Source: Spirosoma sp.
GTDB lineage: Bacteria; Bacteroidota; Bacteroidia; Cytophagales; Spirosomataceae
NCBI RefSeq assembly: GCF_026391055.1
Contig: NZ_JAPLET010000009.1
Span: forward strand, 1-64,000
Direction of reading: 5' to 3'
DNA: 64,000 nucleotides
A model generated the notes under the pieces. The model was not told where the DNA came from and did no database searches. It saw only the letters and a program-made list of their open reading frames with translations. Both the position numbers and the translations under genes were made by a program. Of this stretch, positions 3,860-59,043 are shown one piece after another. Within the stretch, counting starts at the first letter, position 1; the number at the start of each line of letters is the position of its first letter.

Positions 3860-3925
3860 TCTCTTGTACCCGACGGCAGGCCGGGTAGCCGGTGCCATGC
3901 GGTCGGGTACTTAACTAAACTTACA

Positions 3926-53625: not shown

Positions 53626-53753
53626 CGTATGCTACCGATTGGATTGGACAGATATTAAAATCACCGTAAGAGCCCCTCATATTGTACATTTCCGTACCTC
53701 ACCTTCTTATACGGGTACCAGCGTAACTTGACTTTACGCTTTCGCTGGTGCAT
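53626..53753 (-). repeat. 128-bp solo copy of the IS3-element right end, inverted
   Basis: The reverse complement of this stretch matches 58638-58765 closely, including the OrfB C-terminus (VKLRWYPYKKVRYG) and the terminal CGTATGCTAC. It is inserted in the IS110 remnant. It contains none of the 16-nt insertions. Confidence 0.82.
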
Positions 53754-57211: not shown

Positions 57212-57249
57212 ATACCGTATGCTACTGGAAAATCTAGTCAGAATCCAGT

Positions 57250-57486
57250 ATGAATACGTATCTTAATGATTTGTTAGGCTATAAGAAAAAGAAAACTCGA
57301 CACCTATTTCGATGGAAGGTCGTCGAAGCCTATCGCGCCGAACGAGTCCAGGCCTCCGAACTGGAAGAAACCTTGCGCATTCCCATGAAGGAGCTGCGCC
57401 GTCTCAACCGCAACTACTTTAGACTCCGCTTACTTCCCCGCGCGTCGGCCGCCTATTACAACCCAGAAACCGCCGAAAAACGATGA
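57250..57486 (+). CDS. IS3-element OrfA (helix-turn-helix)
   Basis: A 78-residue basic protein (MNTYLNDLLGYKKKKTRHLF, ending NPETAEKR), the position and size of a short IS3 OrfA. It would bind the IS ends. Its stop overlaps the OrfB start (ATGA at 57483-57486), the arrangement used for coupling or frameshifting in IS3 elements. It is intact and has no 16-nt insertion. Confidence 0.7.
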   Translation: MNTYLNDLLGYKKKKTRHLFRWKVVEAYRAERVQASELEETLRIPMKELRRLNRNYFRLRLLPRASAAYYNPETAEKR

Positions 57487-57538
57487 AACGAGACGCGGAT
57501 TATATCAAAATGCTGGAACGTAAACTAGCTGACATGGA

Positions 57539-57554
57539 CCGGGCCGCCGGAGCG
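57539..57554 (+). repeat. 16-nt insertion 1
   Basis: CCGGGCCGCCGGAGCG, forward. Removal restores GAC-ATG-GAG-AAG (DMEKE). Confidence 0.85.
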
Positions 57555-57623
57555 GAAGGAGAATCAGTTTCTCCGCTTATAGGCTGAGGCCTACCAAACG
57601 GTGATCCAGATCGCCGAAGAGCA

Positions 57624-57639
57624 CGGGGCCGCCCGTGCG
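57624..57639 (+). repeat. 16-nt insertion 2
   Basis: CGGGGCCGCCCGTGCG, forward. Removal restores GAG-CAG-TTT-TAC (EQFY). Stem pair C2-G11 is swapped to G-C relative to consensus. Confidence 0.85.
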
Positions 57640-57670
57640 GTTTTACATTCCAATCGTAAAAAAGCCTGGC

Positions 57671-57686
57671 CGCACCGGCGGACCGG
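57671..57686 (-). repeat. 16-nt insertion 3, inverted
   Basis: Its reverse complement is CCGGTCCGCCGGTGCG. One extra base beside it is needed to reach the QAAEKL frame. Confidence 0.78.
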
Positions 57687-57753
57687 CCAGGCGGCCGAAA
57701 AATTAACTCGTCGCTACCCCTTAGTGGGGATGGAGGTAATTTGTAAGCTGTTT

Positions 57754-57769
57754 CGGAGCCGCCCGTGCG
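57754..57769 (+). repeat. 16-nt insertion 4
   Basis: CGGAGCCGCCCGTGCG, forward. Removal restores TTT-GGC-CGA-GTG-AGA-CAA (FGRVRQ). Confidence 0.82.
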
Positions 57770-57847
57770 GGCCGAGTGAGACAAGCCTGGTATGCGGCTA
57801 CCCGGCGACAGGAGAAGGTGTGGTTTCAGACGGATGCTATCTTGCAG

Positions 57848-57863
57848 CCGGGCCGCCGTCGCG
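57848..57863 (+). repeat. 16-nt insertion 5
   Basis: CCGGGCCGCCGTCGCG, forward. Removal joins CAG to GAA (LQEV). Confidence 0.85.
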
Positions 57864-58112
57864 GAAGTCAGGCGCATACGCCGTGATATTCCGGGCATGG
57901 GTACCCACAAACTCCATCATGAAATGCAAGTATTTTTAACCCGGCATCGCATTAAACTAGGTCGGGATCGCTTGCATGTGCTCTTGAAAGAGAACGGCAT
58001 GCTGGCTAAGCGCAAGGCCCAAAAGGTCACAACAACTCAATCAAATCATACGCATTTCAAATACCCTAACAAGGTCAAAAATGTCATACCTAGCCGGGCT
58101 AATGAGTTGTGG

Positions 58113-58128
58113 CCGGGCCGCCGGTGCG
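58113..58128 (+). repeat. 16-nt insertion 6
   Basis: CCGGGCCGCCGGTGCG, forward, the consensus. Removal joins TGG to GTG-AGC-GAT (WVSD), the catalytic Asp block. Confidence 0.88.
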
Positions 58129-58213
58129 GTGAGCGATCTGACGTATATATCAGTGGGGCCGACTTATGCGTATCTCTACATCATCATGGATGCTTTTTCG
58201 CCTAAGATCGTGG

Positions 58214-58229
58214 CAGGGCCGCCTGTGCG
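58214..58229 (+). repeat. 16-nt insertion 7
   Basis: CAGGGCCGCCTGTGCG, forward. Removal restores GTG-GGC-TGG (VGW). A and T replace C2 and G11 as a compensated pair. Confidence 0.88.
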
Positions 58230-58329
58230 GCTGGTCTTTGAGAAAACGATGCATGCTCAAGGGGCTTTGAGGTCATTGAATATGGCTTTGTAAGCCCGTG
58301 AAGATATCAGCCAGTCGTTGATCCATCAT

Positions 58330-58345
58330 CGCTCCGGCGACCCGG
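58330..58345 (-). repeat. 16-nt insertion 8, inverted
   Basis: Its reverse complement is CCGGGTCGCCGGAGCG, identical to insertion 9. Removal restores CAT-CAT-TCG-GAT-CGG (HHSDR), the second catalytic Asp block. Confidence 0.88.
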
Positions 58346-58439
58346 TCGGATCGGGGCGTTCAGTACTGTTCCTGGGCATACGTGCAACGACTACGTCAAG
58401 TGAATGCGACCATCAGTATGACTGAGTCGGGTGATCCGA

Positions 58440-58455
58440 CCGGGTCGCCGGAGCG
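58440..58455 (+). repeat. 16-nt insertion 9
   Basis: CCGGGTCGCCGGAGCG, forward. Removal restores GAT-CCG-AAC-GAA-AAC (DPNEN), beside the catalytic Glu region. Confidence 0.88.
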
Positions 58456-58612
58456 ACGAAAACTCGATGGCTGAGCGCGTGCTTCAGTCCCTAAAGGAGG
58501 ATTGCAAACTGAGCCGTACCTTTACTTCTTTCGCGGCCGCAACGGAAGGTATCGAACGAGCGATTACGGCTTATAACACGGTTCGTCCACACGCTTCGCT
58601 GAATTATTTAAC

Positions 58613-58627
58613 CGCCCGGCGGCCCGG
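58613..58627 (-). repeat. 15-nt insertion 10, inverted
   Basis: Its reverse complement is CCGGGCCGCCGGGCG, the consensus minus one base. Removal restores TTA-ACT-CCG-CAT (LTPH). Being 15 nt, it leaves the frame intact. Confidence 0.75.
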
Positions 58628-59043
58628 TCCGCATCAAATGCACCAGCGAAAGCGTGAAGTCAAGTTACGCTGGTACCCATACAAGAAGGTGAGGTACGGA
58701 AATGTGCAATGCGAGGGCCTCTTACGGTGATTTTAATATCTGTCCAATTCAATCAGTAGCATACGCTTAGGTAGATAGATGTGCTTCTAGTCTGAAAGTT
58801 GGGAAAAGAAACGCGTTTCATTTATGTTGACCTGTTCAATTTGTCTCGTAAATAGATAGACCACCAATGAGAATCAATAATATAAGTTACATCTCATTAT
58901 TAACTGAACGAGTCATAATCAGCCATCAAAACCGTTCAGAAAAACGTCCAGTTGTTTTTAGGCCAAAACAATATTTATAATTGCAAAACTTTACGAATAG
59001 GCTCACCCATTTGGCCACTTATTCCTGACCGCTTACCCAACCG

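What the first reader, a model, noticed from the sequence alone, without database searches (positions are those of the whole stretch)
57539..58627. Ten copies of a 16-nt hairpin micro-insertion inside one IS3 transposase gene
OrfB is interrupted at ten places by a GC-rich piece of 16 nt (one copy 15 nt), consensus CCGGGCCGCCGGTGCG. Seven copies are forward and three inverted. Excising each one rejoins recognisable transposase sequence at single-codon precision (WVSD, HHSDR, VGW, LQEV). Positions 1-4 pair with 9-12 around the loop 5-8. Copies 2 and 7 change both members of a pair (G-C and A-T for C-G), so structure is conserved. Position 13-16 is always NGCG. The base after most insertions is G. 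This looks like a mobile or homing micro-element, reminiscent of very small dispersed repeats in cyanobacteria and GC clusters in yeast mitochondria. RNA-level removal or translational bypass are alternatives.
Basis: partly seen in the sequence, partly recalled or inferred. Interest (0 to 1): 0.93.

Follow-up and report, generated by a model that had tools for sequence, protein, structure and literature searches.

The report
Sixteen-base mobile hairpin in transposase genes
A dead transposase gene in a bacterium is riddled with copies of a 16-letter mobile DNA hairpin that is scattered through related genomes, and the loop of the hairpin base-pairs with the first letter of the place where it inserts, which makes the unknown way such tiny elements move directly testable.

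Summary
Against intact IS3 copies in sister species (89-93% identical outside the gaps), the window copy carries ten inserts of 15-16 nt and an eleventh, degenerate one of 14 nt. The copy is dead: it also has two nonsense codons and a 1-nt deletion.

The piece is a micro-element dispersed in the genus (probably Spirosoma); one variant was also found in Dyadobacter, Larkinella and Emticicia. For 100 of 244 copies an exact empty homologous site was found, with no duplication or loss. Nine of ten window sites are also occupied in IS3 copies outside its clade.

In 17 largely unsampled genomes, copies with T6 are followed by A 78, G 22, C 1 (T not searched), whereas 20 of 487 C6 core matches were found followed by a base other than G.

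RNA removal or bypass is unsupported. The mobilising enzyme is unknown; Y1/RAYT genes do not track it. It works like a minimal REP/IS200-type element but fails that family's tests.

The parts
57216..58765 (+). Dead IS3-family copy (orfA/orfB) that hosts the micro-insertions; 12-bp terminal inverted repeats
   Evidence: Inverted repeat I6 57216-57227/58754-58765; aligns end to end with L009, L036, L010, L037
57438..57451 (.).
   Evidence: Gap against all four intact copies aligned
57539..57554 (+). Micro-element copy 1, 16 nt, next base G
   Evidence: keeps all five pairings scored
57624..57639 (+). Copy 2, 16 nt, stem pair 2-11 is G-C, next base G
57671..57685 (-). Copy 3, net 15 nt, at the centre of the palindrome GCCTGGC|GCCAGGC; loop TCCG, next base G
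   Evidence: the same site carries the element in the opposite orientation in L096
57754..57769 (+). Copy 4, 16 nt, one stem mismatch (A at position 4), next base G
57848..57863 (+). Copy 5, 16 nt, mismatch at pair 1-12, next base G
   Evidence: aligner places it one base left; the boundary is ambiguous by one G
58113..58128 (+). Copy 6, 16 nt (W|VSD site), next base G
   Evidence: boundary ambiguous by one G
58214..58229 (+). Copy 7, 16 nt, stem pair 2-11 is A-T, next base G
   Evidence: boundary ambiguous
58330..58345 (-). Copy 8, 16 nt, loop GTCG, next base A (HH|SDRG site)
   Evidence: same site and type in other genomes
58440..58455 (+). Copy 9, 16 nt, loop GTCG, next base A
58613..58627 (-). 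Copy 10, 15 nt, position 13 missing, next base G
57580..57582 (+). Nonsense codon unrelated to the inserts
58291..58293 (+). Second nonsense codon unrelated to the inserts
58236..58237 (+). 1-nt deletion relative to all four intact copies aligned

Best explanation
The pieces are copies of a non-autonomous mobile element of 16 nt. One strand folds as a 4-bp hairpin (1-4 with 9-12) whose loop also pairs with the element's own 3' end and with the first base of the target (8-15, 7-16, 6-(+1)), a pseudoknot or an alternating fold that straddles the insertion junction. Shown: precise insertion without target loss or duplication where an empty site was found, the preference R|GT, covariation of the pairs, and repeated use of the same sites. 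Inferred: the folded single strand is cut and joined by an enzyme acting in trans, with the loop as the guide that checks the 3' junction on excision and picks the target base on insertion, in the manner of the guide/cleavage-site pairing of IS200/IS605 and REP elements. Insertion frameshifts a gene, so copies survive between genes, in other palindromic repeats and in dispensable or dead transposase genes, where they pile up at the best sites. My split: mobile element about 0.95, loop-target pairing about 0.9, single-stranded-DNA strand transfer by a trans enzyme about 0.5.
For: Empty sites: 85 of 174, 100 of 244 in the larger set, with no excess mismatch next to the junction. Of 160 insertions of 15-17 nt between homologous loci, 151 score as the element (about one anchor miss allowed), 135 of these exactly 16 nt. 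In 117 non-redundant insertions the strongest covarying column pairs are 7-16, 2-11, 1-12, 1-5, 5-12 and 6-(+1). Stem 2 is 90.9% Watson-Crick against 10-33% when slid; 36 two-sided changes against a shuffle maximum of 12. In the 60 rows that neither match the core used for fetching nor come from L210-L239, 7-16 is Watson-Crick in 54 and 6-(+1) in 44. All 11 target clusters with G at 7 have C at 16. Other genomes: 101 T6 copies in 17 genomes are followed by A 78, G 22, C 1 (T not searched); 20 C6 copies followed by A, C or T were found against 487 core matches; Fisher p = 3e-66. Orientation against the interrupted transposase frame is balanced, 23 to 24 at 47 unique targets, which favours DNA over sense-mRNA targets. 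One palindromic site is hit in both orientations.
Against: No mobilising gene was identified. Y1_Tnp has no match (E <= 0.001) in 7 of 36 genus genomes, including G031 with 73 core matches. No replichore strand bias was seen in G032 (100 of 108 sites used); lagging-strand bias is typical of IS200/IS605 (recalled). A 1-nt first loop and a 2-nt third loop make a complete pseudoknot sterically tight, so the two helices may alternate. Position 5 covaries with position 1, which the model does not explain. G6 copies break the +1 rule: of 8, 5 are followed by A, 2 by C, 1 by G. For 144 of 244 copies no empty site was found.
Confidence: 0.6

Rival explanations
1. RNA-mediated insertion: the 16-nt hairpin moves as RNA (reverse splicing-like or templated by a reverse transcriptase), and the loop/+1 pair is analogous to the single 3'-exon pair of group II introns.
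For: The single base pair to the first 3'-flank base resembles the delta/EBS3 contacts of group II introns (recalled). RNA-mediated movement has been proposed for yeast mitochondrial GC clusters (PMC4478555, passages).
Against: Balanced orientation relative to the interrupted frames (strand taken from the longest rejoined frame) and no co-conversion of flanks.
Confidence: 0.2
2. A host system disables transposons by planting short hairpins in them; the transposase bias is targeting, not survivorship.
For: Eleven inserts in one 1.55-kb IS, against 21 exact core matches in the whole 8-Mb genome, 4 of them in this IS. Several transposase families are hit, some copies heavily (L081, L096, L064, L090).
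Against: In G032 only 15 of 90 copies examined are in recognised transposase frames; many others are between genes or in palindromic repeats. Purifying selection can explain absence from host genes.
Confidence: 0.12
3. Inheritance plus loss: an ancestral IS carried the pieces at all sites, and today's empty copies arose by precise excision or gene conversion.
For: Nine of ten window sites are also occupied in IS3 copies outside the window clade, mostly with the same element type per site.
Against: The four nearest relatives aligned (G035, G024) are empty at all ten sites, so many precise losses would be needed. One site is occupied in opposite orientations. The IS110-type GID|V site is occupied in G005, G031 and, in another genus, G059. 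The weak target preference alone already predicts about 1.5 shared sites.
Confidence: 0.12
4. The pieces are functional and removed in RNA or bypassed by ribosomes, so the gene is active.
For: Single-base precision of the junctions. Byp elements of yeast mitochondria are mobile hairpins (recalled; only listings seen).
Against: Unrelated nonsense codons and a deletion in the window copy; no clear intact host gene interrupted among the frames inspected; codon phases differ.
Confidence: 0.03

Closest known systems
REP elements (GTAG-tagged) with RAYT/TnpA-REP transposases
   Same: Short tagged palindromes, dispersed, often in inverted pairs, acted on as single strands; cleavage-site choice by complementarity with an element-borne guide (PMC8266576, passages)
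   Different: Here 16 nt, not 20-40 bp (PMC3733652, passages); the bottom strand starts CGCN, not GTAG; the pairing base lies in the hairpin loop; no Y1 gene tracks the element
CGTC-tagged palindromic repeats
   Same: Tetranucleotide tag plus hairpin, no dedicated transposase known, some inserted in palindromes, reported in Bacteroidetes among other phyla (PMC3733652, passages)
   Different: 8-9-bp stem, 4-5-nt loop, 3-nt tail and CGTC tag; ours has a 4-bp stem, CGCN and no such tail
IS200/IS605 insertion sequences
   Same: Cleavage and target sites read by base pairing with a guide (PMC8266576, passages); no target duplication (recalled)
   Different: Ours has one 12-nt hairpin and no gene; the guide is in the loop, not 5' of the palindrome
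Yeast mitochondrial GC clusters and double-hairpin elements
   Same: Tiny GC-rich mobile hairpins of unresolved mechanism (PMC4478555, passages; double-hairpin papers only as listings)
   Different: GC42 is 42 nt with putative AG target duplication; ours is 16 nt without duplication, in a bacterial family
Small dispersed repeats of cyanobacteria (SDR)
   Same: Very small dispersed mobile repeats in bacteria (recalled; original paper not held)
   Different: Reported as longer (recalled); no loop-target covariation known to me

Membership tests
REP (GTAG) / RAYT system | GTAG (or close) tetranucleotide at one end | tested here: not met
   Bottom strand starts CGC plus a variable base in most of 117 insertions
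REP (GTAG) / RAYT system | Associated Y1 transposase gene, flanked by the repeats | tested here: not met
   7 of 36 genus genomes have no Y1_Tnp match, among them G031 with 73 core matches. Of the 32 Y1 loci held (not all places found), 4 contain elements, 8 in all; only L104 has two beside the gene
CGTC repeats | CGTC tag, 8-9-bp stem, 3-nt tail | tested here: not met
   16-nt unit with 4-bp stem; definition from passages of PMC3733652
IS200/IS605 (ssDNA transposition) | Precise insertion without target-site duplication | tested here: met
   Exact empty sites for 100 of 244 copies; none found for the other 144
IS200/IS605 (ssDNA transposition) | Base-pairing guide that matches the junction/target | tested here: met
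   6-(+1) and 7-16 covariation, but with a loop guide, not a 5' guide, and G6 copies do not follow it
IS200/IS605 (ssDNA transposition) | tnpA (HUH) gene inside the element | tested here: not met
   The element is 16 nt
IS200/IS605 (ssDNA transposition) | Lagging-strand bias | tested here: inconclusive
   No replichore bias in G032: 100 of 108 sites used, 86 after removing close inverted pairs; origin position not known
MITE of a DDE transposon | Terminal inverted repeats and target-site duplication | tested here: not met
   No duplication at the empty sites
Yeast mitochondrial GC clusters | AG or ACT target duplication; GC42 is 42 nt | tested here: not met
   16 nt, no duplication; definition from passages of PMC4478555
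Byp (translational bypass) elements | Host frame otherwise intact and expressed across the insert | tested here: not met
   The window copy has stops and a deletion; expression not testable here, other copies not tested for expression
Cyanobacterial SDRs | Same sequence family or same mechanism | not testable with these tools
   Original paper not held; comparison rests on recall

The most novel reading that the evidence does not exclude
A class of mobile DNA only 16 nt long, spread in one bacterial family, in which the whole element is a self-recognising pseudoknot whose loop reads its own 3' end plus the first target base, moved by machinery that is not a Y1/RAYT transposase. Changing one loop base would change the target base: a minimal nucleic-acid-guided insertion system.
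Probability: 0.4. Interest if true: 0.95.

Novelty: new variant of a known kind. Interest (0 to 1): 0.85.

Why it matters
How very small hairpin elements move is still open: the passages and abstracts I saw call REP dissemination poorly understood (PMC8266576) and leave the GC-cluster mechanism to hypothesis (PMC4478555). This family offers many copies, exact empty sites, recurrent targets and a one-base rule linking loop and target, so the mechanism becomes directly testable in culturable relatives. At 16 nt it would be among the smallest natural mobile DNA units (recalled, not searched). It also warns that frameshifted transposases in these genomes can reflect micro-insertion, not sequencing error.

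Tried and rejected
Y1/RAYT as mobiliser: no tracking across 36 genomes. Replication-strand bias in G032: none. Flanking inverted repeats as a general target rule: complementarity counts for k = 1 to 10 are near chance except k = 5 (37 of 107) and k = 1 (8 of 107, below chance), although several intergenic copies do lie in palindromes. A long fixed target motif: only about 3.4 bits. Pairing of loop base 5 with +2: not supported. A functional tRNA host in L149: none called. IS605 ends as the origin of the element: only L104 has two copies beside tnpA, and no homologous empty site was found for them. Paper searches for Spirosoma repeats, small dispersed repeats, double-hairpin elements, very small mobile repeats, mobile elements in Spirosomaceae, bypass, Dyadobacter palindromes, guide/pseudoknot and SDR5 listed no paper that I recognised as describing this element; I saw titles and abstract starts only, apart from passages of PMC3733652, PMC4478555 and PMC8266576.

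Biases to keep in mind. Most loci were fetched because they hold the core GGGCCGCCNGNGCG, so consensus counts are inflated; 54 of the 117 rows match that core. Loci L210-L239 were fetched with T7 and A or G at 16 required, so their T7 rows are no evidence for 7-16; three of the 117 rows come from them, two at the selected site. The reversed-sequence control (391 against 0) is on pre-selected loci. Named-genus loci L240-L290 were selected with T6 followed by A, so one search is no test of that rule. The pattern excluded T after the element; the 487 do not require C at position 1, so the C6 proportion is approximate. The 17 test genomes had supplied a few loci before. Site lists for searches were entered by hand. 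Only one member of each large transposase cluster was checked against Pfam. Rows dropped: one search kept 244 of 270 pattern hits; one search dropped 9 unanchored insertions and 1 too near an end, and merged 151 to 117; one search used 100 of 108 sites and removed close inverted pairs to 86. One search stopped with a script error after part of its output and was rerun.

Full report
1. The observation. The window holds one IS3-family copy bounded by 12-bp inverted repeats at 57216-57227 and 58754-58765. The genus search found full-length relatives about 170 nt shorter. Outside gaps the identity is 88.6-93.0%. These relatives keep open orfA and orfB frames; the window copy has two unrelated nonsense codons and a 1-nt deletion. 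The pieces are real insertions into a copy that is dead.

2. Genome, genus and family. The core GGGCCGCCNGNGCG occurs 21 times exactly in the window's genome (4 in this IS) against 4 for the reversed pattern. It is enriched in most of the 36 genus genomes, for example 134 against 1 in G005, 97 against 1 in G032 and 73 against 2 in G031; a few, such as G008 (2 against 2), are at control level. With a longer pattern ending in GT, all 17 same-genus genomes drawn and, by my count of the table, 27 of 62 other genomes of the family match, against 35 of 311 in other families of the order, with one to five matches each. Some of these, in the family too, lack the 2-11 pair and are probably chance. In named genomes one 20-nt variant was found in 51 stretches: 27 Dyadobacter, 15 Spirosoma, 5 Larkinella, 1 Emticicia, 1 unnamed Spirosomataceae and 2 MAGs titled Chloroflexi and Thermoflexales, likely chance. 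G031 is probably Spirosoma endophyticum, because three contig lengths agree, so the window's genus is probably Spirosoma.

3. Precise insertion. For 100 of 244 copies an ungapped homologous site without the piece was present among the fetched loci (85 of 174 in the first set). Mismatch between occupied and empty copies is no higher next to the junction than further away. The +1 base comes from the target: 73 cases are G in both states (C6) and 6 are A in both (T6); in 10 cases the empty relative has A where the occupied C6 copy has G, and a handful differ otherwise. Insertions of 15-17 nt between homologous loci number 161; of the 160 with enough flank, 151 score as the element (about one anchor miss allowed) and 135 of those are exactly 16 nt.

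4. Structure by covariation. In 117 non-redundant insertions the strongest covarying pairs are 7-16 (Watson-Crick in 111), 2-11 (110), 1-12 (108), 1-5 (100), 5-12 (through 1) and 6-(+1) (101). Stem 1 is 94.7% Watson-Crick (28-44% when slid), stem 2 (6-17, 7-16, 8-15) 90.9% (10-33% when slid); two-sided changes are 56 against a shuffle maximum of 18, and 36 against 12. Because many loci were chosen by the core, I checked the 60 rows outside it and outside L210-L239: Watson-Crick in 52 (1-12), 55 (2-11), 54 (7-16), 50 (8-15) and 44 (6-(+1)). A sub-class with G at 7 ends in C: all 11 target clusters. The loop thus pairs with the element's 3' end and with the first target base. I call this a pseudoknot across the junction; whether both helices exist at once is not shown, and the connecting loops are short for that.

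5. The target-base rule in other genomes. The rule was first seen in 166 copies and holds in 175 target clusters: T6 is followed by A in 10 and G in 5 of 15, C6 by A in 3 of 154 (p = 2e-10). It was then tested in 17 genomes that had supplied only a few loci. T6 copies: 101, followed by A 78, G 22, C 1; among the 93 with a 2-11 pair, A 73 and G 20. T after the element was not searched for. C6 copies followed by A, C or T: 20, half of them without a 2-11 pair, against 487 core matches (p = 3e-66, with the caveat that the two patterns differ at position 1). G6 copies do not follow the rule: of 8, 5 are followed by A, 2 by C and 1 by G.

6. Where copies sit. Of 85 rejoined frames of at least 120 aa, 58 belong to transposases: an IS3 cluster (37), an IS110 cluster (15), a Mutator type (2) and four Pfam-supported singletons (one member per large cluster tested). 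Two more singletons look like transposases without a Pfam match. The others that I inspected were mostly upstream extensions of host genes; two (L056, L057) are ambiguous. In G032, 15 of 90 copies are in recognised transposase frames; many others lie in palindromic repeats or between genes. Orientation in transposases is balanced (23 to 24 at 47 unique targets).

7. Recurrence. Nine of the ten window sites (same strand, within one base) are also occupied in IS3 copies outside the window clade (L011, L012, L014, L015, L017, L096, L099); a simulation weighted by the target preference gives a mean near 1.5 and a maximum of 7 in 20,000 trials (sites entered by hand). The palindromic site 409 is occupied in both orientations. 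The IS110-type site GID|V is occupied in G005, G031 and, in another genus, G059. Recurrence with mostly the same element type per site fits type-specific targeting. Inheritance with precise loss is less parsimonious, because the four closest relatives aligned are empty at all ten sites.

8. Mechanism. The best reading is a single-stranded 16-nt element recognised by its fold and by the loop-junction pairing, cut and joined by an enzyme in trans. The logic is that of IS200/IS605 and REP elements, whose cleavage sites are read by an element-borne guide (PMC8266576, passages). Membership fails: wrong tag, wrong size, guide in the loop, and no Y1 match in several genomes, one of them rich in elements. 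An RNA route is possible but less favoured. A transposon-silencing role is not excluded.

9. Verdict. Confirmed, and stronger than reported: a micro-element of a bacterial family with a target-reading loop. New variant of a known kind, with unknown machinery.

Noticed in passing
window 3881-3896: A further element-like 16-mer (stem pairs kept, loop GTAG, 7-16 mismatched) inside a larger palindrome with arms GTACCCGAC/GTCGGGTAC.
   Followed up: no
window 53626-53753: Solo remnant of the same IS3 end (93% over 128 nt), inverted, 3.5 kb upstream.
   Followed up: no
L149:1940-2240: In G334 (same family) two tandem tRNA-Arg-like sequences (my reading) carry the element inside the T stem and another GC-rich insert near the anticodon stem; no tRNA is called there, so they are probably pseudogenes.
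   Followed up: partly
L057:990-1020: In the window's own genome an element inside a larger repeat lies in a long open frame that I read as an iron-sulphur oxidoreductase and that runs through it (554 aa with the element in place).
   Followed up: no
L104:1454-1907: In G002 an IS605-type unit (tnpA and tnpB divergent, my reading of the frames) has two inverted elements directly beside tnpA.
   Followed up: partly
L082, L086, L087, L066, L072: Element copies nested, often at the same position in both arms, in larger dispersed repeats containing TTTTTGTCAT-type sequence, which multiply them in G005 and G032.
   Followed up: no
element position 5: Position 5 is complementary to position 1 (100 of 117) and usually equals position 12; the simple fold does not explain this.
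   Followed up: no
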